Positions 3 to 8,177 of a stretch of 9,182 nt of DNA are shown piece after piece. A model generated the notes under the pieces. It worked only from the letters and a program-made list of their open reading frames with translations, made no database searches and was not told the origin of the DNA. A program made the translations under genes and the position numbers. The stretch is from the NCBI GenBank assembly GCA_001797815.1, contig MGQK01000053.1:54722-63903 (forward strand). The letters run 5' to 3'. The stretch comes from Deltaproteobacteria bacterium RBG_13_61_14 (lineage in GTDB: Bacteria; RBG-13-61-14). The stretch's first letter is position 1; each line of letters starts with the position of its first letter.

Positions 3-1130
3 ATCTTGTGTTTGATTCTCAGCGCCGGGATGCCACTCGCCGTGGCCTATTATGTGGCCAGCAAAAAATATCCGATCGAGGATATCGCGCTCAGCCTGAT
101 CGTTTTCAGCCTCTTCGCCTCGGCCATCACGTTTGGCTTGTGGCTGCTCGGATCCCCTTTCCTGCACCAGCGGTATTTCCCCTTCCTCACCCGGCACCAG
201 ATCCTGCTCGCCGGCCTGCTCGCGCCCATGATCCTGGGCAATCAAATGGCCTCGCGGCTTTTGCAAGGCAAACAAAACTACCTGGCCGCGAATTCCATCC
301 TGATGGCGGCGGACCTAGCCATCTTAATCACCTTGTGGAGTCTGGTGTTGCTTCAGCCGAAGCCCGATTATCGCCTGATTCTGGAGGCGGTCCTGATCGG
401 CGAGGGCATGAGTTTCTTGTTGGGCCTGGGCCTGGTCATGCGCCTGGGAATCCGGCCGCGGCTCCGGTTGCATTTCCCTTTTCTCCGGGAAGCGCTCAGT
501 TACGGTATCCGCGGTCAAATCGGAGCGATCGTCAATATCATGAATTATCGCCTGGACGTGCTCATCCTGGGCTTTTTTGCCACCCCCGCGGTCGTCGGCC
601 TTTATGGCTTGGCTTCAAAATTTGCGGAGGTTCTCCGCGTACTCCCCAATGCGGTCGCGTTTGTTTACATGCCGCGTTTCGGCAAGCGCGCCTTTGCCGA
701 AGCCGCCCGGATGGCCGAAGAAACCTTTTATCTACTCATGATGATCAACTTGGGTCTGGTGGTGGCGGCGGCCTTGCTCGGCAAGATCCTCATCCTTACC
801 TTTTTCGGCCCCTCGTTTCAGCCGGCAGTTTTACCTTTCTATATTCTGCTCCTGGGAATGGCGGCCCAGGGCGGCAACGGCGCCTTGAGCGCGTTCCATA
901 ACGGAACCGGTAACCCCGAATATAGTACTTACGCGGTGGGGTTGGCCTTTCTCGTCACCTTGGTGTTCGACTTGCTCTTGATTCCCCCGTACGGGGCGAC
1001 CGGCGCCGCCATCGCGTCCTCCCTGTCCTATGCCACCATCGCCCTGGCCTTGCTCTTTTTCTTCTCGCGGAACACGGGAAGAGCCTTCGGTCGGTTCAAG
1101 CTCTGGCAATGGAACATGACCAAACCCTGA
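3..1130 (+). CDS. Wzx-like polysaccharide flippase (MOP superfamily), 5'-truncated
   Basis: Polytopic inner-membrane protein expected to flip undecaprenyl-diphosphate-linked repeat units to the periplasmic side. The frame is open to the window edge and the visible protein begins inside a hydrophobic helix, followed by a GMPLAVAYYVA stretch typical of the second helix of MOP-family flippases. The in-frame TTG at 6 is therefore probably not the start, and roughly 50 N-terminal residues lie outside the window. About 375 residues are visible, with some ten hydrophobic segments. Family-like signatures are the central YRLDVLILG...VGLYGLASKFAEVL region (about residues 180-210) and the late LLLIPPYGATGAAIASSLSY block (about 325-345). 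It ends 22 nt inside the next gene, which suggests translational coupling. The sugar specificity cannot be read from the sequence. Other MOP transporters are possible, but the neighbouring polymerase and glycosyltransferases make a Wzx role by far the likeliest. Confidence 0.88.
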   Translation: MLCLILSAGMPLAVAYYVASKKYPIEDIALSLIVFSLFASAITFGLWLLGSPFLHQRYFPFLTRHQILLAGLLAPMILGNQMASRLLQGKQNYLAANSILMAADLAILITLWSLVLLQPKPDYRLILEAVLIGEGMSFLLGLGLVMRLGIRPRLRLHFPFLREALSYGIRGQIGAIVNIMNYRLDVLILGFFATPAVVGLYGLASKFAEVLRVLPNAVAFVYMPRFGKRAFAEAARMAEETFYLLMMINLGLVVAAALLGKILILTFFGPSFQPAVLPFYILLLGMAAQGGNGALSAFHNGTGNPEYSTYAVGLAFLVTLVFDLLLIPPYGATGAAIASSLSYATIALALLFFFSRNTGRAFGRFKLWQWNMTKP

Positions 1131-3283
1131 GTGCCGCCATCTGGCAATGCCCTGCTTGCCGGACGAGCCTGCGGCCTGAAAACTCTTCGTGGTGCTGCCC
1201 CGCCTGCCAAATCCACTACCCCTTGCAGGAAGGTTTTTTCTATCGGTTTACCGAGACCGATTACTACTATGGGTTTAGCGGCTTTCCCCGGGAGGAGATG
1301 ACCCGGTTTTTTGAAGAGGCCCAGGCCCAGGGATGGAAAAATACCTATGTGAAAAGGATGGCCTCAATCTTTCCGCGCTACGCGCTCGGCACTGGCTGGC
1401 GCGACCGGGCCCGGGCGCTCTACCGTGCCTTGCGGGGCAGCACAATCCCGCTTTTTATCCGCAATGTCTTTGATGCCAGCCGGGCAGGATTTAAATTTCT
1501 TCTGCCGCTGAACCAGTCCGGCATCCTGCTCGACTACGGCAGCGGCGTGGGAACCATCTCCTGCTTGTTAGCGCCTCACTACCAGCAGGTAGTGTCCCTG
1601 GATCTATGCGCGGCCCGGCTGCGCTTCTCGCGCTTGCGCGCCCAGGAAGAAGGCGCCCTGAACCTGACCTATGTCTTGGCCGGAGACCGGCTCCCTCTAC
1701 CTTTCCGCGACCAAACCTTCGACACGATCATCCTCAACGGCGTTTTGGAATGGGCGCCCGTGAGTTTCTCCGGTCCCCCCGATGAAGCCCAAACACGCCT
1801 GCTCCGGGAGATGGCTCGAATCCTCAAACCCGCGGGATCCCTCTTTGTCGCCATTGAAAATCGCTACAGCCTCCTGGATGTCCTGGCTCTCATCGAAGGC
1901 CATACCGGCCTGATCTGGGGAGCCGTGCTGCCGCGTCGGATTTCCGACCTCTATTCCCGCCTCAAGTATGGGAAAGAAATGCGCGTGTATACACACTCGC
2001 GGCGGGTTTTAGCGCACATGCTCACCGAGGCGGGTTTCGAGTCCACCCACTTTTTCTGCCCGCTCCCGTCCTATCACAACTTTCGAAAAATTGTCTCCCT
2101 GGAAGACCAGGGCATGAGCTTATCGTTTGATTTCTTCCCCACTACGCGTAGGTTTCATTGGGTCAACCGCGTTCTCTCCGTGGCCGCGGATATCTCCCCC
2201 CTGAACCAGCTTTTGCAAAAAACCGTCCCCTCGTTCCAGGTCACCGCGCAAAAAAATCACTCTTCTGCCCCCTCTTCTTTTTTGACCCGCCTCTTGCAGC
2301 ACCTGGGCCGGGAGATGGAAAACTGTTCTCCCAACCTGCAGGTGGAGCAATATCTGGTGCGGGGAAACCGGGTGGTGGTTTTAGCGAGTCCCCCTTCCTC
2401 ACCCGCCGGGGTCGTGATCCGATTACCCTTGAACCCCGCCGGGGAGGCGATGACCCGAACCAGTTGGAATGCCTTGCAGGCGTTACAGGACCATCCCACC
2501 TTGCGGCATGAGAGAAAAGCGTTGTTTCCGCGACCCCTGCGAACCGGGATTTTGGAAGGCCAAACTTATTTCGTCGAGGAAAAAAAGTCCGGCCGGCCTG
2601 GAAGTTACTGGGTTTCGTTCCCTCTTTATCAGAATCGAATTCACCAGGCGGTTTCCCTGTTTTCGGACCTCTGGGCCGAGAGCCAGACCGTCCGGGGTTT
2701 TACCGAATCGGACTTTGACCGTCTTTTTGCCAACCCCCTGAGGCATCTGGAATCGGTCCTGGCCCACTCTCCTCTGGCTGACTTCCCGCAGCGACTGGGA
2801 GATGCTCTCCGGCTTTCTTTGCTGGGACACCAGACCTCCCTCGGTATGGTCCACGGCGATTATCATCTCTTAAATCTCCTCTTCGGCAAGCAAGGAGAAA
2901 TTCAGGGAATTACCGACATGGATACGCTCACCTGGCAAGGCCTGCCGGGAGTGGACCTGATCGCGCTTTTTTCCCGCTATCCCTATCTGCGCCAGGGTAT
3001 GAATTTTGGCCAGGCCTTTCTCTCCGTGATTCTCCCCCGGCGCTTCTTCTCCTTTGAACAAGCCCTCTGGGAGCAACATGCCCGACAGTACCGCCTCGGC
3101 GACCTCGATTACTCGGCCAGTGCGATCTGGTTTTGGCTGATGCACGTGCACCTCAATTTGATGGGCCTGCTGCAATACGATCCGAATTGGATTCAGGCCA
3201 ACGTGATCCTGATGGCCCAGCATCTCTCCACCAAGCTTTCTCCAGAGCGCCTCTTGGATGGCTTCCTTCACCCGCAGGACTAA
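1109..3283 (+). CDS. Trm112-like zinc ribbon / SAM methyltransferase / APH-like kinase fusion
   Basis: A 724-residue soluble protein with three recognisable parts. Residues 14-45 form a Trm112-like zinc ribbon (C14-x2-C17, C30-x2-C33, then a YPLQEGF tail). Residues about 120-330 are a class I SAM methyltransferase: motif I is LDYGSGVG (141-148), D165 ends strand 2 where the SAM ribose is usually bound, and FDTIILNGVLEW (204-215) is the strand-4 region. Residues about 410-690 resemble aminoglycoside-phosphotransferase-type kinases: VVIRLP (435-440), FPRPL (473-477), catalytic loop VHGDYHLLN with D584 and N589, ITDMD with probable metal ligand D603, and the GVD at 614-616. The usual N-lobe helix Glu is not obvious. 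It overlaps the flippase gene and ends 3 nt before the next start. By inference it methylates and phosphorylates the glycan or a precursor. The domain order recalls WbdD, the methyltransferase-kinase that caps E. coli O8/O9a chains, though WbdD has no such zinc ribbon as far as I know. The substrate is unknown. Confidence 0.85.
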   Translation: MEHDQTLSAAIWQCPACRTSLRPENSSWCCPACQIHYPLQEGFFYRFTETDYYYGFSGFPREEMTRFFEEAQAQGWKNTYVKRMASIFPRYALGTGWRDRARALYRALRGSTIPLFIRNVFDASRAGFKFLLPLNQSGILLDYGSGVGTISCLLAPHYQQVVSLDLCAARLRFSRLRAQEEGALNLTYVLAGDRLPLPFRDQTFDTIILNGVLEWAPVSFSGPPDEAQTRLLREMARILKPAGSLFVAIENRYSLLDVLALIEGHTGLIWGAVLPRRISDLYSRLKYGKEMRVYTHSRRVLAHMLTEAGFESTHFFCPLPSYHNFRKIVSLEDQGMSLSFDFFPTTRRFHWVNRVLSVAADISPLNQLLQKTVPSFQVTAQKNHSSAPSSFLTRLLQHLGREMENCSPNLQVEQYLVRGNRVVVLASPPSSPAGVVIRLPLNPAGEAMTRTSWNALQALQDHPTLRHERKALFPRPLRTGILEGQTYFVEEKKSGRPGSYWVSFPLYQNRIHQAVSLFSDLWAESQTVRGFTESDFDRLFANPLRHLESVLAHSPLADFPQRLGDALRLSLLGHQTSLGMVHGDYHLLNLLFGKQGEIQGITDMDTLTWQGLPGVDLIALFSRYPYLRQGMNFGQAFLSVILPRRFFSFEQALWEQHARQYRLGDLDYSASAIWFWLMHVHLNLMGLLQYDPNWIQANVILMAQHLSTKLSPERLLDGFLHPQD

Positions 3284-3286
3284 CCC

Positions 3287-4699
3287 ATGTCCCGCCGTTC
3301 CTTCTATTCTTACTGTTTCAGCCATTTCTTGTATCCGGCCTTCAATCGCCTGATTGGCCGGGACATGTATGGAGTTTTTACCGAACGGAAACAAACCGAG
3401 TGGTGGTCGCCCGAAGAAATCCGGGCGCTCCAGCTTCGCAAACTTCAGCGCGTCCTCGCCGTGGCCAACGAGCGGGTGCCCTTCTATCGGCGGACGTTTC
3501 AAAAGATCGGCTTTCATCCCCAGGAGCTGAAAAGCCTGGACGAGTTTCGCGCCCTGCCTTTTTTCATCAGTAAACCCGACGTGCAACAGCACACCGAGGA
3601 GTTCATTGCCGAAGGCTGTAACCGCAAGCAACTCACCTGGCATCGGACCGGCGGATCCACCGGAGTGCCGCTCCTGTTCGCCACCGATCCGGCCACCAAC
3701 GCGGCCAGCGCGGCAACTCTTATGCGTCTGGTGGATTGGTGGGGCATGGCCCTGGGCGAACCCCATGTCATGTTCTGGGGCTCTCCTCGTTTCATCATTC
3801 GCACGCGCCTCGACCGCTTCCGGAAAAGGACCCTGGCGATCCGGCACCGCCTGATGAACCGGCGGTTTTTCACCAACTACAATCTCAACCCGCAGAATAT
3901 GCGGGTCTATCGCCAGATGATTGAAAAGTTTCAACCCTCTTACATTCGGGGCATGGCTTCCTCCCTGTTCCTGTTTTCACGATTCCTGGTGGCGGAGAGG
4001 CTGGAGCTGGATCGAGGGCGACCCCGTGCGGTCTTCTCCTCCTGCGAGCAACTCTACGACTGGGAAAAGGAAATGATCGAGCGCGGTCTGCGCGCCCCGG
4101 TGGCGAATACCTATGGGGTGAGCGAACACTCCGAGATCGCCGCTTGCCCGCCCTGCGGCAGCATGCACCTGATGGAAGAAGATGTCTACTGCGAGCTGGT
4201 GCCCCTTTCCGAAGACGGCCAAACCCTGGAGATCGTGGCCACCCAACTCAACAATACCCTGACCCCCCTCATCCGCTACCGGACCGGAGACATCGCCGAT
4301 CGCATCACCCAGGGCTGTTCCTGCGGAAGGGGGCTGGGAATCTTGGAAGGCCTGCGCGGCCGCGCCCATGATTTCATCGTGGCCCCGGACGGCCGTTTTG
4401 TTCATGGCCAGTTCTTTACCCATCTGCTGGTTTTCGAATCCGGGATTCAAAAGTATCAGGTGATTCAGGAAGAGCTGACTCGGTTTCGGATTCTGCTCGT
4501 TACCGGCCCCGACTACTCTCGGGAAAGTGAAACCCGCGTCTTGACCGGAATGCAGAGCTACCTCGGAGACAGCATCAAGGTCCAGTTTGAATATCCGGAC
4601 CTTATCCCGCTGACCGGTGCGGGCAAACACCGCTGGATTGTCTCCAAGGTGGCCCAGCGCGCTGCGGAAAATCCAGCGAGCAAACAGGCTCCCGGGTAA
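3287..4699 (+). CDS. PaaK/CapK-like adenylate-forming enzyme (COG1541-type)
   Basis: A 470-residue cytoplasmic protein of the ANL adenylate-forming superfamily, resembling phenylacetate-CoA ligase and the CapK/F390-synthetase group. Such enzymes activate a carboxylate with ATP to an acyl-adenylate and may pass it to a thiol or other acceptor. Visible motifs: phosphate-binding loop HRTGGSTG (119-126), YGVSE (276-280) at the adenine/substrate site, YRTGD (331-335) with the ATP-ribose Asp, and TGAGKHR (443-449) with K447 as the probable catalytic lysine. Two cysteine pairs, CPPC (287-290) and CSC (344-346), sit where PaaK relatives often carry a metal-binding knuckle. The ATG lies 3 nt after the preceding stop, without a clear Shine-Dalgarno sequence, so translation is probably coupled. 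Relatives recur in polysaccharide gene clusters, but their acyl substrate there is mostly undefined. A role in acylating or amide-decorating a sugar is inference only. Confidence 0.85.
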   Translation: MSRRSFYSYCFSHFLYPAFNRLIGRDMYGVFTERKQTEWWSPEEIRALQLRKLQRVLAVANERVPFYRRTFQKIGFHPQELKSLDEFRALPFFISKPDVQQHTEEFIAEGCNRKQLTWHRTGGSTGVPLLFATDPATNAASAATLMRLVDWWGMALGEPHVMFWGSPRFIIRTRLDRFRKRTLAIRHRLMNRRFFTNYNLNPQNMRVYRQMIEKFQPSYIRGMASSLFLFSRFLVAERLELDRGRPRAVFSSCEQLYDWEKEMIERGLRAPVANTYGVSEHSEIAACPPCGSMHLMEEDVYCELVPLSEDGQTLEIVATQLNNTLTPLIRYRTGDIADRITQGCSCGRGLGILEGLRGRAHDFIVAPDGRFVHGQFFTHLLVFESGIQKYQVIQEELTRFRILLVTGPDYSRESETRVLTGMQSYLGDSIKVQFEYPDLIPLTGAGKHRWIVSKVAQRAAENPASKQAPG

Positions 4700-4786: not shown

Positions 4787-6238
4787 ATGTCTCCGTTTTC
4801 TAAGCTGCTCTTAACCCTCGGCCTCATCGCTCTGATCTCGCTCCCCTTTCTGTTCGTTTTTATCTTGCGGGACCCGAAACGGTTCCTCTACCTGGTGGTC
4901 TTTGCCATGCCTTTTATTACCAACCCGAGCCGGAATATGGTCTTGAAACGACTTGGCCTTTCGGAGCTCATCTTTGTTCCCTTCTTGATCTTTTGGATCA
5001 TCTATTCTTCTCTGTCGGGAAGAGGTCTGAAGCGGCCGACCCCCCTGCATTCCCTGATCTTCGTTTTTTTCATTTCCGTGACTTTTTCCATGCTGGGCCT
5101 GGACAGAACCAATTACTTGCTCCCGCTGGTCGAACTCCTGGTCCTGCTTTATGCGATCATTTTCTGCTTTGCCGCGGATCAAGTGATTGACAACGAACAT
5201 GACCTGGAAAATGTCATTACTGCCTGGATGTTGGGAGCCGCAACCATGTCCATCGTCGGAATGCATGATGTCTTTGCGATTGTCTTCGGCGGCACCCGGT
5301 GGTTCTGGACCCCGGATCCTTACCGGATTGTGGCCACCTTCCGGGCGACCGGGCAAGTGGGAGTGTTTTGCCTGTCCACCTTTTTCCTGGCCGTCGCTTA
5401 CTCGTCCTGCGGCTGGCTCTCCTTGCGGAAGCGAGCGCTGCTCTGGTCCCTGGCCGCAACTATGGTGGTATTGATTACCTTCAGCTCCCGCCGCTCGGCG
5501 ATTGCCTCCCTGGCGTTCGGGGCGGCCTTCTTCCTGATTTCTCGAATCCGTCAGCCGGCCCGGATCATCTTCTATTCGTTGATCTTTTTCCTCACTCTTT
5601 CCGCCTCCGCGGTTCTCCTTAACTATAACCCCGAGGCCAAAGAGCATCTCCTCAAGCGTCTCAGGGTTTTGGAATTACCCGAGGATTCGACAGGATCGGA
5701 AACCTTTATCAAATCCAACTTTGGCAGCGCCCTTGATGCATTTATGGATAAGCCGTTGGTGGGCATCGGTTATGGCGCGTTTGCCGATTCGGAGTATTCC
5801 GAATTTGGAGTCGAAATCCACAGCACGCCGCTGCGCATCTTGGCCGAATGCGGCCTCGTCGGCTTTATCGCCTACGCGGCTTTCATCCTCGCTCTTTTAT
5901 ATTATGCCTTCCAGAATATACTCCTGGCCCGAAACACGCGCTGGAAAAACTTCAGCACCCTGCTTTTTGCCAGCCTGCTCGCCCTGCAGGTGAGCTACCT
6001 TTATAACCGAGCCGTCCGTGACCGCACCTTTTGGCTCCTGGTCGCTCTCACCATCGCCTTGTACCGGATCTTGGGCCAAAAGCGCGCGCAGAAGACCACG
6101 GCTTTGTGGAATGCAAAATCGAATTATCTTGCCGTTCCCCATCCTTCCCCCTCGGCCTTTCCCGCTCCCCGCTCGGGAGGAATCCACCCGGGCGGGAGAG
6201 AATGGCCAGGGACTGCCGCGCGACGAGGAACCCCCTAG
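4787..6238 (+). CDS. Wzy-like O-antigen polymerase/ligase family membrane protein
   Basis: A 483-residue polytopic membrane protein with roughly eleven hydrophobic segments between residues 5 and 428. It matches the O-antigen ligase/polymerase (Wzy_C, WaaL) pattern: FRATGQVGVF (185-194), TFSSRRSA (231-238) leading into a helix, a large periplasmic loop (about 278-345) containing KPLVGIGYGAF (322-332), then HSTPLRILAECGLVGF (345-360). H345 and the Arg pair 235-236 are candidate functional residues by analogy with WaaL-type enzymes. The product either joins repeat units in the periplasm or ligates glycan to an acceptor; with a flippase in the same cluster, polymerase is favoured. ATG 4787 is the first usable start after an in-frame stop at 4760, but no good Shine-Dalgarno precedes it. 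The last ~45 residues, after a basic segment near 430, are a Pro/Gly/Arg-rich tail that looks unlike the rest and may be poorly conserved. Confidence 0.83.
   Translation: MSPFSKLLLTLGLIALISLPFLFVFILRDPKRFLYLVVFAMPFITNPSRNMVLKRLGLSELIFVPFLIFWIIYSSLSGRGLKRPTPLHSLIFVFFISVTFSMLGLDRTNYLLPLVELLVLLYAIIFCFAADQVIDNEHDLENVITAWMLGAATMSIVGMHDVFAIVFGGTRWFWTPDPYRIVATFRATGQVGVFCLSTFFLAVAYSSCGWLSLRKRALLWSLAATMVVLITFSSRRSAIASLAFGAAFFLISRIRQPARIIFYSLIFFLTLSASAVLLNYNPEAKEHLLKRLRVLELPEDSTGSETFIKSNFGSALDAFMDKPLVGIGYGAFADSEYSEFGVEIHSTPLRILAECGLVGFIAYAAFILALLYYAFQNILLARNTRWKNFSTLLFASLLALQVSYLYNRAVRDRTFWLLVALTIALYRILGQKRAQKTTALWNAKSNYLAVPHPSPSAFPAPRSGGIHPGGREWPGTAARRGTP
6157..6200 (+). repeat. GC-rich inverted repeat in the 3' end of the polymerase gene
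   Basis: CTTTCCCGC (6157-6165) can pair with GCGGGAGAG (6192-6200) in RNA, giving nine pairs with one G-U. A competing shorter hairpin, CTCCC-CGCTC-GGGAG, spans 6165-6179. It lies within the low-complexity tail of the polymerase frame and 70 nt before the GTG start of the glycosyltransferase. It could affect ribosome passage or mRNA stability. GC-rich coding DNA often yields such stems by chance, so this is a weak call. Confidence 0.25.
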
Positions 6239-6269
6239 GCGTTCCCGTAGGGTTGGGGTCGGTCCAGAC

Positions 6270-7466
6270 GTGAAGGCGAGGAAGATCAAGCTGCTGCATG
6301 TGACGACGGTTCCCCAGACGCTTTTTTATTTTCTCCGGGGACAGATTCAGCATGTCCAGCGGAAGGGGATTCTGGTGGAGGCCATTTCCTCTCCAGGTCC
6401 GATGTTAGAGGAGTTGGCCCAGCGGGAGCAGATCAAGGTTTATCCGGTGTTGATGGTGCGCGGCATCTCGTTGTTCCGGGATTTGGCCTCCGTCTGGAAG
6501 CTGTGGTGGCTTTTTCGGAAGCTGTCCCCCACCATTGTCCACGGCAGCACTCCTAAGGCCGGCCTTCTGACCATGATCGCGGGGGCCTTGGCCCGGGTTC
6601 CGATCCGGTTTTACACTATCCGCGGCCTGCATATCACCTCCCGGACCGGGGTGCTCCGGCGCATCCTGAGACTGACCGAAAAAATCTCTTGCTTTTTTGC
6701 TCACCAAGTAATCTGCGTCAGCCACAGCATCCGGAACATCGCGGTGGCCGAAGGCATCTGTCCCGAATCCAAAATCAAAGTGCTTCATCACGGGAGTAGC
6801 AACGGCGTGGATGCCCAGCGCTTTTGCCGGTCCAACCTGAGCGAGGCCCGGTCCCAGGAATTCCGCCGGCAATGGAACATCCCGGAAGAAGCCCAGGTGC
6901 TGGGATTCATCGGCCGGCTGGTGCGGGACAAGGGGATCCATGAATTGATTTCCGCCTGGAATCTGCTCCGGCCCGAATTTCCCAAGCTCCATCTCCTGCT
7001 CGTGGGATCCCTTGAAGACCACGATCCCTTGGACCGCGGCGTGGTCCAGCAGATTCGAGAAGACCCCCGCATCCACCATACTGGGATGATCAAGGACGTC
7101 TTGCCCGTCTACGGGATTTGCCAGGTGGCCGTCCTGCCCAGCTATCGCGAAGGCTTCCCCAATGTTCCCCTGGAAGCGGCGGCCATGGAACTTCCTGTCA
7201 TCGCCACCCGGGTTCCGGGCTGTATGGATGCAGTGGTGGAGGGGGTGGCCGGCATCCTGGTCCCGCCCCGCGAGGTCCCCGCCTTGGCCCAGGCAATTCG
7301 CGCCTTGCTCAGGGATCCGGAATTAAGGAAAAGAATGGGCCAGGCGGGAAGGGAGCGGATCCTTCGGGACTTTCGGCCCGAGAATATCTGGCAGGCACTT
7401 TATCAGGAGTATCTGGATTCCCTCGAAAAAAAGGGAATTCCCGCTCCCCAGCCGGAAAGCGCGTAA
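6270..7466 (+). CDS. CapM-like GT4 family glycosyltransferase (GT-B fold)
   Basis: A 398-residue retaining glycosyltransferase, cytoplasmic and probably membrane-associated, that transfers a sugar from a nucleotide donor to the lipid-linked glycan. The N-terminal acceptor domain starts KIKLLHVTTVPQT and includes HGSTPKAGLL (91-100) and FYTIRGLH (114-121), a pattern typical of CapM-type GT4 enzymes. The linker region has ICVSHSIR (148-155) and GSSNGVD (175-181). The donor domain shows GFIGRLVRDKG (212-222), with R216 and K221 as the likely donor-phosphate ligands, and the EX7E motif SYREGFPNVPLE with E294 and E302. The start chosen is GTG at 6270, because homology begins directly after it; a GGGG at 6255-6258 may serve as ribosome site. 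The frame is open further upstream but overlaps the polymerase gene there. It abuts the phosphoglycosyl transferase gene with no gap, so it may add the second sugar. Donor identity is unknown. Confidence 0.9.
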   Translation: MKARKIKLLHVTTVPQTLFYFLRGQIQHVQRKGILVEAISSPGPMLEELAQREQIKVYPVLMVRGISLFRDLASVWKLWWLFRKLSPTIVHGSTPKAGLLTMIAGALARVPIRFYTIRGLHITSRTGVLRRILRLTEKISCFFAHQVICVSHSIRNIAVAEGICPESKIKVLHHGSSNGVDAQRFCRSNLSEARSQEFRRQWNIPEEAQVLGFIGRLVRDKGIHELISAWNLLRPEFPKLHLLLVGSLEDHDPLDRGVVQQIREDPRIHHTGMIKDVLPVYGICQVAVLPSYREGFPNVPLEAAAMELPVIATRVPGCMDAVVEGVAGILVPPREVPALAQAIRALLRDPELRKRMGQAGRERILRDFRPENIWQALYQEYLDSLEKKGIPAPQPESA

Positions 7467-8177
7467 ATGAATTCAAAGCAGCACCGGATCCAGAAAGCAT
7501 TGAAGCGGGTCCTGGATGTCCTGATCGCGGGGACCGCCTTGCTCGTGCTCTCTCCTTTGATCCTGCTTCTGTCTCTGTTGATCCGGTTGACCACGGGAGC
7601 GCCGGTCTTTTTCCGGCACCAACGCCCAGGCTATCGAGCGAAAATTTTTACCTGCTACAAGTTTCGCACCATGACGGAGGCGCGGGATGAGGAGGGGAAC
7701 CTCCTGCCCGATGACCAGCGGCTGACCCGGGTGGGGAAATTCATGCGCTCCCTCAGCCTAGATGAACTGCCCCAGCTATTCAATGTGCTCAAGGGAGATA
7801 TGTCCCTGGTAGGCCCCCGTCCGTTGCTGATCGAATATCTCAAGCGATATACCCCGGAACAAGCGCGGCGCCATGAGGCGAAGCCTGGGATTACCGGCCT
7901 AGCCCAGGTGAAAGGAAGAAATGCGTTGCTTTTTAGCCAAAGGCTGGCTTACGACATTGAATACGTGGATCATTTCAGCCTCTGGTTGGACGTGAAAATC
8001 TTATTGTTGACCGCCCTCAAGCTATTCTTTCGGCGACTGGAGGATCGGGCAGGCCAGCATGTCTCGGTGGTGGATGATCTGGGGCTTCACCGGGACTCTA
8101 ATCCTACCCTTTTCCATGGCGGGAATCCCTCCGGGGCTCGGAAGGAGATGTCCGAAGCTAGGAGTCTGTCGGAATAA
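7467..8177 (+). CDS. PglC-like phosphoglycosyl transferase (bacterial sugar transferase)
   Basis: A 236-residue monotopic enzyme that transfers a sugar-1-phosphate from a nucleotide sugar to undecaprenyl phosphate, the first committed step of repeat-unit assembly. It is the short, catalytic-core form without the extra N-terminal helices of WbaP-type proteins. Residues 15-42 are the hydrophobic re-entrant helix, with the S29-P30 break seen in PglC. YKFRTM (64-69) is followed by SLDELPQLFNVLKGDMSLVGPRP (97-119), containing the catalytic D99-E100 dyad and R118. KPGITGLAQVKGR (139-151) and the DHF motif near 168-170 complete the core. The ATG follows the previous stop directly and has a GGAAAG Shine-Dalgarno at 7454-7459, seven bases upstream. 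About 45 residues beyond the core form a polar, Gly/Ser/Arg-rich tail longer than in PglC. It is the last gene before the AT-rich gap, and its stop is followed at once by TAG. Confidence 0.93.
   Translation: MNSKQHRIQKALKRVLDVLIAGTALLVLSPLILLLSLLIRLTTGAPVFFRHQRPGYRAKIFTCYKFRTMTEARDEEGNLLPDDQRLTRVGKFMRSLSLDELPQLFNVLKGDMSLVGPRPLLIEYLKRYTPEQARRHEAKPGITGLAQVKGRNALLFSQRLAYDIEYVDHFSLWLDVKILLLTALKLFFRRLEDRAGQHVSVVDDLGLHRDSNPTLFHGGNPSGARKEMSEARSLSE

What the first reader, a model, noticed from the sequence alone, without database searches (positions are those of the whole stretch)
1109..3283. Three-part zinc ribbon-methyltransferase-kinase fusion, possible chain-capping enzyme
One polypeptide joins a Trm112-like ribbon, a SAM methyltransferase with an intact GSGVG loop, and an APH-like kinase with HGD, N589 and D603 in place. 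Established precedent: WbdD of E. coli O8/O9a fuses methyltransferase and kinase in the same order and stops chain growth by phosphorylating and methylating the non-reducing end. Here the cluster looks Wzx/Wzy-dependent, where no such capping is standard. It may be a new terminator, or a decorating enzyme adding phosphate and methyl groups.
Basis: partly seen in the sequence, partly recalled or inferred. Interest (0 to 1): 0.6.

Follow-up and report, generated by a model that had tools for sequence, protein, structure and literature searches.

The report
Sugar-modifying methyltransferase–kinase fusion beside Wzx
A three-part bacterial enzyme encoded directly behind a sugar-lipid flippase gene probably adds a phosphate and a methyl group to sugar building blocks of a surface polysaccharide before export; it belongs to a widespread family for which I found no description, and it resembles, without belonging to, the known chain-capping enzyme WbdD.

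Summary
In detail: 1109-3283 (+) is one 724-aa frame with a CxxC/CxxC ribbon, a class I SAM methyltransferase (MTase) and an APH-fold kinase with H582-G583-D584, N589 and D603 intact. It is not chance. A scan of 84,980 genomes gave 46 relatives from many phyla and two archaea: 24 fused, 15 with the kinase as a separate gene in the same locus (usually next door), 7 with no kinase seen (some at contig ends). The window's own genome also has a split pair. A Wzx flippase is the immediate neighbour in 14 of the 46 loci and at both own-genome loci. The host cluster is a full Wzx/Wzy/Wzz system.

The predicted structure's best Foldseek match is WbdD across both domains, but the protein is not a WbdD: no coiled-coil ruler, no ABC transporter, no clear sequence similarity, and WbdD's phosphate-binding His pair is Glu-Trp. 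The only relative found beside Wzm/Wzt has a long, coiled-coil-like tail. 'Terminator' is therefore poorly supported. A cytoplasmic modifier adding phosphate, and probably methyl-phosphate, to the lipid-linked repeat unit before Wzx fits best. Verdict: new variant of a known kind.

The parts
1109..3283 (+). Ribbon-MTase-APH kinase fusion, 724 aa
1139..1246 (+). Trm112/RlmA-like zinc ribbon, about residues 11-46 (C14, C17, C30, C33)
   Evidence: sequence; the family profile matches 2kpi; Pfam Trm112p in 5 of 24 relatives; cysteines in 34-37 of 48 members
1253..2260 (+). Class I SAM methyltransferase domain, about residues 49-384
   Evidence: Pfam Methyltransf_11; AF2 model, VIA Z 14.7-16.3 to MTases
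1532..1552 (+). SAM-binding loop D142-Y-G-S-G-V-G148
   Evidence: G144 in 48 of 48 and G148 in 46 of 48 members
1733..1753 (+). Family signature L209-NGVLE-W215 at the acceptor side of the MTase; E214-W215 align with WbdD H132-H133
   Evidence: its invariance is partly built in, because the scan used this motif
1934..1936 (+). Invariant R276 (46 of 46 ungapped members), aligned with WbdD's essential phosphate-site R203 (low-confidence register)
2234..3280 (+). APH-fold kinase domain, residues 376-724 as modelled
   Evidence: AF2 pLDDT 89.0; VIA Z 18.1 to 3dxp, about 17 to APH(2''); Pfam APH
2852..2875 (+). Catalytic loop H582-G-D584 to N589
   Evidence: HxD in all 35 aligned kinases, N in at least 90%; aligned with WbdD D351 and N356
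2915..2917 (+). Metal-binding D603 (ITDMD)
   Evidence: invariant in 35 kinases; aligned with WbdD D369
3..1130 (+). Wzx-type flippase, 3' end overlapping the fusion gene by 22 bp (N-terminus lies before the window)
   Evidence: Pfam Polysacc_synt_3 E 1e-9; sequence
3287..4699 (+). PaaK/CapK-like adenylate-forming ligase
   Evidence: NCBIfam PaaK-type models, 74-113 bits, below their cut-offs
4787..6238 (+). Wzy-type polymerase/ligase
   Evidence: Pfam Wzy_C E 1.7e-11
6261..7466 (+). GT4 glycosyltransferase
   Evidence: Pfam Glycos_transf_1 E 8e-37
7467..8177 (+). Initiating phosphoglycosyl transferase
   Evidence: Pfam Bac_transf E 2e-65

Best explanation
A bifunctional, cytoplasmic glycan-modifying enzyme of a Wzx/Wzy-dependent surface polysaccharide pathway. 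Its APH-type kinase phosphorylates a hydroxyl of the undecaprenyl-diphosphate-linked repeat unit. Its SAM-dependent MTase then methylates the product, most likely on the phosphate to give a methyl-phosphodiester, less likely on a sugar hydroxyl. The modified unit is flipped by the Wzx encoded directly upstream and joined by Wzy. The ribbon probably stabilises the MTase or shapes its acceptor side. Shown: domains, intact motifs, kinase fold, conserved MTase/kinase pairing, Wzx adjacency, cluster type. Inferred: the glycan substrate, the order of the two steps, the site of methylation.
For: Catalytic residues intact and conserved. The best Foldseek PDB match over both domains is WbdD, four of the top five rows, E about 1e-8. 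The kinase alone matches small-molecule kinases: APH(2'') and choline kinase LicA, APH(4) and N-acetylhexosamine kinase. The MTase/kinase pair is fused or encoded in the same locus in 39 of 46 relatives, with repeated fusion or fission on the tree (6 changes; starred branches force 4), so the two activities work together. Neighbours are Wzx, GTs and Wzy_C. Wzx is adjacent at both own-genome loci. Precedents: WbdD (PMC3482155) and Kp O7 ORF6-N (PMC11231755) phosphorylate a sugar and then methylate the phosphate. R276, invariant, aligns with WbdD's phosphate-site R203.
Against: WbdD's phosphate-site H132-H133 is replaced by E214-W215, so methylation of phosphate is not secured. The R276/R203 register has low posterior confidence. 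No substrate can be tested here. About half the loci show no Wzx within the fetched DNA (some are contig ends), and two acidobacterial split pairs (L067, L075) lie near aconitase and STAS genes, so the family may not be purely glycan-linked.
Confidence: 0.6

Rival explanations
1. WbdD-like chain terminator: the enzyme caps the non-reducing end of the growing chain with methyl-phosphate and sets chain length.
For: Same MTase-kinase order and Foldseek match to WbdD. One relative, L048, sits beside Wzm and Wzt_C and has a 207-aa coiled-coil-like kinase tail, so the family can probably do this in ABC systems.
Against: The window protein has no ruler (121-aa compact tail, no coiled-coil window), no Wzm/Wzt, a Wzy and a Wzz/Wzc-type regulator in the cluster. 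Wzy-type growth at the reducing end is not stopped by a cap on a repeat unit's non-reducing end.
Confidence: 0.12
2. Two separate decorations: the kinase phosphorylates one sugar position and the MTase O-methylates a different hydroxyl; no methyl-phosphate is made.
For: E214-W215 replaces the His pair that WbdD uses for phosphate. The E. coli O8 enzyme methylates a sugar hydroxyl directly (PMC3482155).
Against: MTase and kinase stay fused or in the same locus in 39 of 46 relatives, which fits sequential action on one group better. R276 is kept. In both characterised MTase-kinase terminators the methyl goes on the phosphate.
Confidence: 0.2
3. The kinase acts on a small precursor (free sugar or amino sugar, making a sugar phosphate for nucleotide-sugar synthesis) and the MTase methylates that precursor.
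For: The kinase fold matches small-molecule kinases such as APH, choline kinase and N-acetylhexosamine kinase.
Against: This would not explain the persistent coupling to the MTase or the adjacency to Wzx; WbdD and the O7 enzyme act on polymer ends.
Confidence: 0.07

Closest known systems
WbdD, E. coli O9a / K. pneumoniae O3 (PDB 4azs, 4uw0)
   Same: MTase then kinase in one chain; best Foldseek match across both domains; catalytic D351, N356, D369 equivalent to D584, N589, D603; both kinases match Pfam APH; possibly R203 = R276
   Different: No clear sequence similarity (BLASTP E 0.06); extra ribbon; H132-H133 replaced by E214-W215; no coiled coil; Wzx/Wzy rather than Wzm/Wzt context
ORF6-N terminator of K. 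pneumoniae O7 (PMC11231755)
   Same: MTase plus APH-fold (AmiN-like) kinase; shown to make methyl-phosphate on a glycan
Aminoglycoside phosphotransferase / choline kinase superfamily (PF01636)
   Same: Fold and HGD...N...D motif; VIA Z 16-18
   Different: Fused to an MTase and encoded in a polysaccharide cluster; unlikely to be drug resistance
RlmA and Trm112-type ribbon methyltransferases
   Same: N-terminal four-cysteine ribbon before the MTase; 1p91 (RlmA) aligned over model residues 11-384, Z 15.3
   Different: rRNA or translation-factor substrates; no kinase

Membership tests
WbdD (O9a-type terminator) | MTase followed by kinase in one polypeptide | tested here: met
WbdD (O9a-type terminator) | Kinase catalytic Asp, Asn and metal Asp (D351, N356, D369) | tested here: met
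   hhalign registers HDD..N..D to HGD..N..D
WbdD (O9a-type terminator) | Phosphate-site H132-H133 in the MTase | tested here: not met
   E214-W215 at that register; E-W in 48 of 48 members, partly by construction of the scan
WbdD (O9a-type terminator) | Phosphate-site R203 | tested here: inconclusive
   R276, invariant in 46 ungapped members, aligns with it in three hhalign runs, but posterior confidence there is low
WbdD (O9a-type terminator) | C-terminal coiled-coil ruler | tested here: not met
   121-aa tail, 0 coiled-coil windows against 29-76 in four WbdD proteins (heuristic)
WbdD (O9a-type terminator) | Wzm/Wzt ABC export with a Wzt C-terminal recognition domain | tested here: not met
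   The window and its cluster carry Wzx, Wzy and Wzz/Wzc; no ABC transporter seen there. Among relatives only L048 has Wzm/Wzt_C
K. pneumoniae O7 ORF6-N terminators | MTase joined to an APH/AmiN-fold kinase | tested here: met
   definition from PMC11231755
K. pneumoniae O7 ORF6-N terminators | Coiled coil after the kinase, shared by all the orthologues aligned in the paper | tested here: not met
K. pneumoniae O7 ORF6-N terminators | Sequence orthology | not testable with these tools
   ORF6 sequence not held in the collections I searched
APH superfamily PF01636 | Profile score above the curated cut-off, and fold | tested here: met
   27.2 against 23.2 bits; VIA Z 16-18
Class I SAM methyltransferase (Methyltransf_11) | Profile score above cut-off with SAM loop | tested here: met
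   58.4 against 21.2 bits
Trm112-like zinc ribbon | CxxC...CxxC with Trm112p/RlmA ribbon similarity | tested here: inconclusive
   Cysteines present; single-sequence Pfam match sub-threshold; family profile matches 2kpi at 7.7e-7. Zinc binding untested
All of the above | Enzymatic phosphorylation and methylation of a glycan | not testable with these tools
   needs biochemistry

The most novel reading that the evidence does not exclude
A methyl-phosphate tag is placed on the lipid-linked repeat unit as a completion signal read by the cognate Wzx flippase, a Wzx-pathway counterpart of the cap that Wzt recognises in the O9a system.
Probability: 0.12. Interest if true: 0.8.

Novelty: new variant of a known kind. 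Interest (0 to 1): 0.48.

Why it matters
Phosphorylating and methylating a glycan end is known mainly as chain termination in ABC-transporter systems. Here the same pair of activities is tied to flippase pathways in many bacterial phyla and some archaea. This points to an overlooked class of charged glycan decorations, or an export tag, and gives a directly testable gene-to-structure prediction.

Tried and rejected
(1) Plasmid search with the protein: only MTase-domain matches. (2) Anti-phage defence: PADLOC mad2 matches the MTase domain only (67-255, E 4.6e-16); neighbours are glycan genes, so rejected. (3) Antibiotic resistance via APH: rejected on context and fusion. (4) Search of 391 genomes of the class of the L048 organism for more ABC-linked relatives: none beyond L048's own, so the tail/ABC link rests on n = 1. 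(5) WbdD search in 369 genomes of the class of L034's organism: nothing found, and without a positive control this shows nothing. (7) Paper searches for MTase-APH enzymes in Wzx clusters found no description; the library is open-access only. (8) AmiN, the best match of the O7 kinase in the paper, is not among the 50 rows shown for this kinase; this does not exclude it.

Full report
OBSERVATION. The frame at 1109-3283 is real and complete. It starts inside the end of a Wzx-type flippase gene (22-bp overlap) and ends 3 bp before a PaaK/CapK-like ligase gene, as in an operon. Pfam gives a class I MTase and an APH kinase, both above the curated cut-offs. The ribbon cysteines C14, C17, C30, C33 are there; the ribbon is weak for the single sequence (E 0.088) but real for the family (2kpi, E 7.7e-7; Trm112p in 5 of 24 relatives). 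Every residue number in the finding is correct.

FAMILY. A scan of 84,980 species genomes with an alignment of the MTase part gave 46 loci: Verrucomicrobiota, Lentisphaerota, Planctomycetota, Omnitrophota, Chloroflexota, Gemmatimonadota, Pseudomonadota, Myxococcota, Acidobacteriota, candidate phyla, one Bacillota isolate, two Methanosarcinaceae archaea and one aenigmarchaeote. Twenty-four encode MTase and kinase in one frame (23, plus L069); 15 have the kinase as a separate gene in the same locus, usually adjacent or overlapping; 7 show no kinase, some because the contig ends there. The window's own genome carries a second, split pair (L002). On a tree of 48 MTases the fused label changes 6 times, and well-supported branches force at least 4, so fusion or fission happened repeatedly. 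Caveat: the scan pattern included LNGVLEW, so the invariance of that motif is partly circular; R276, H265 and Y322 (46 of 46 ungapped members) were not in the patterns.

STRUCTURE. AlphaFold2 with the 24-member alignment gave a confident model (pLDDT 83.8, pTM 0.88). Foldseek's first three PDB matches, and four of the first five, are WbdD structures spanning both domains (561-647 columns, E about 1e-8). The high rmsd and low TM mean the relative placement of the domains differs. VIA-align, dominated by the MTase, gives Z 14.7-16.3 to MTases, including RlmA over the ribbon as well. The kinase folded alone (pLDDT 89) matches APH and choline kinases at Z 16.2-18.1.

COMPARISON WITH WbdD. I took WbdD from E. 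coli HS (O9). BLASTP finds no clear similarity (E 0.06, SAM motif only). hhalign registers the kinase catalytic residues and aligns WbdD H132-H133 to E214-W215, H197 to H265, and R203 to R276. According to PMC3482155, H132, H133 and R203 are all essential for phosphate methylation and have no equivalent in the O8 hydroxyl methyltransferase. The family thus keeps, at best, one of the three; posterior confidence around R276 is low. Methyl-phosphate is my favoured product but is not shown.

CONTEXT. Wzx is the immediate neighbour in 14 of the 46 loci (one of them, L076, is cut by the contig end) and lies within the fetched DNA in about half; Pfam confirms Polysacc_synt families among neighbours. 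The window's cluster, read from the assembly, has Wzx, Wzy, an initiating phosphoglycosyl transferase, GT4 enzymes, a Wzz/GNVR/P-loop regulator, nucleotide-sugar enzymes and a NusG-domain antiterminator. Only L048 (Thermotalea metallivorans) has Wzm and a Wzt with C-terminal recognition domain. Its separate kinase has a 207-aa tail that reads like a coiled coil followed by a WR-containing amphipathic end, whereas the 34 other kinases have 56-126-aa tails. By the same heuristic the four WbdD proteins have strong coiled coils, the window none, L048 a modest signal.

MECHANISM. In O9a the chain grows at the non-reducing end, so a cap there stops growth, and Wzt reads the cap (PMC3482155). In Wzy systems the growing chain is moved onto the non-reducing end of a new lipid-linked unit, so a cap on a unit cannot stop growth in the same way (established knowledge). 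With no ruler, no Wzt and a Wzz-type regulator present, decoration of the lipid-linked repeat unit before flipping is the most economical reading. Klebsiella O7 ORF6-N shows that an MTase with an APH-like kinase can make methyl-phosphate on a glycan (PMC11231755).

VERDICT. A well-founded observation. It works like WbdD and O7 ORF6-N in chemistry, but it is not a member of the WbdD family on tested features. The family, its ribbon and its Wzx context appear undescribed in the papers I could search.

Noticed in passing
L002 (own genome, G000:C84:7453-11112): Second, split MTase + APH pair beside another Wzx; no ribbon, and the kinase motif reads NGD instead of HGD.
   Followed up: partly
L048:3513-10335: Wzm, Wzt_C, ribbon-MTase and a kinase with a long coiled-coil-like tail in one cluster: a likely WbdD-like terminator in a Bacillota isolate.
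   Followed up: partly
L067 and L075 around 7600-10700: Acidobacterial split MTase/kinase pairs whose neighbourhood seems to hold aconitase, STAS and HATPase-type genes rather than glycan genes (inferred from the pooled Pfam tally).
   Followed up: no
L039:2703-6535: A fused copy followed directly by a split MTase + kinase copy.
   Followed up: no
L055, L057, L058, L060, L062, L066, L072: A well-supported fused subgroup with a YWCN-type motif that includes two Methanosarcinaceae archaea; the pooled neighbour tally of fused loci holds 7 radical SAM and 5 B12-binding proteins, probably near this group.
   Followed up: no
window:8400-9182, continued in L079:9122-10864: TylF-type methyltransferase in one 581-aa frame with a PylC-like ATP-grasp domain.
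   Followed up: no
window:1307-1873 (residues 67-255): The MTase domain matches PADLOC mad2 of the MADS defence system at E 4.6e-16, so that defence MTase may belong to the same subfamily.
   Followed up: no
L096:101-2533: A plasmid-borne WbdD of 810 aa with about 100 aa more tail and more coiled-coil windows than the 708-aa form; possibly a longer ruler.
   Followed up: no
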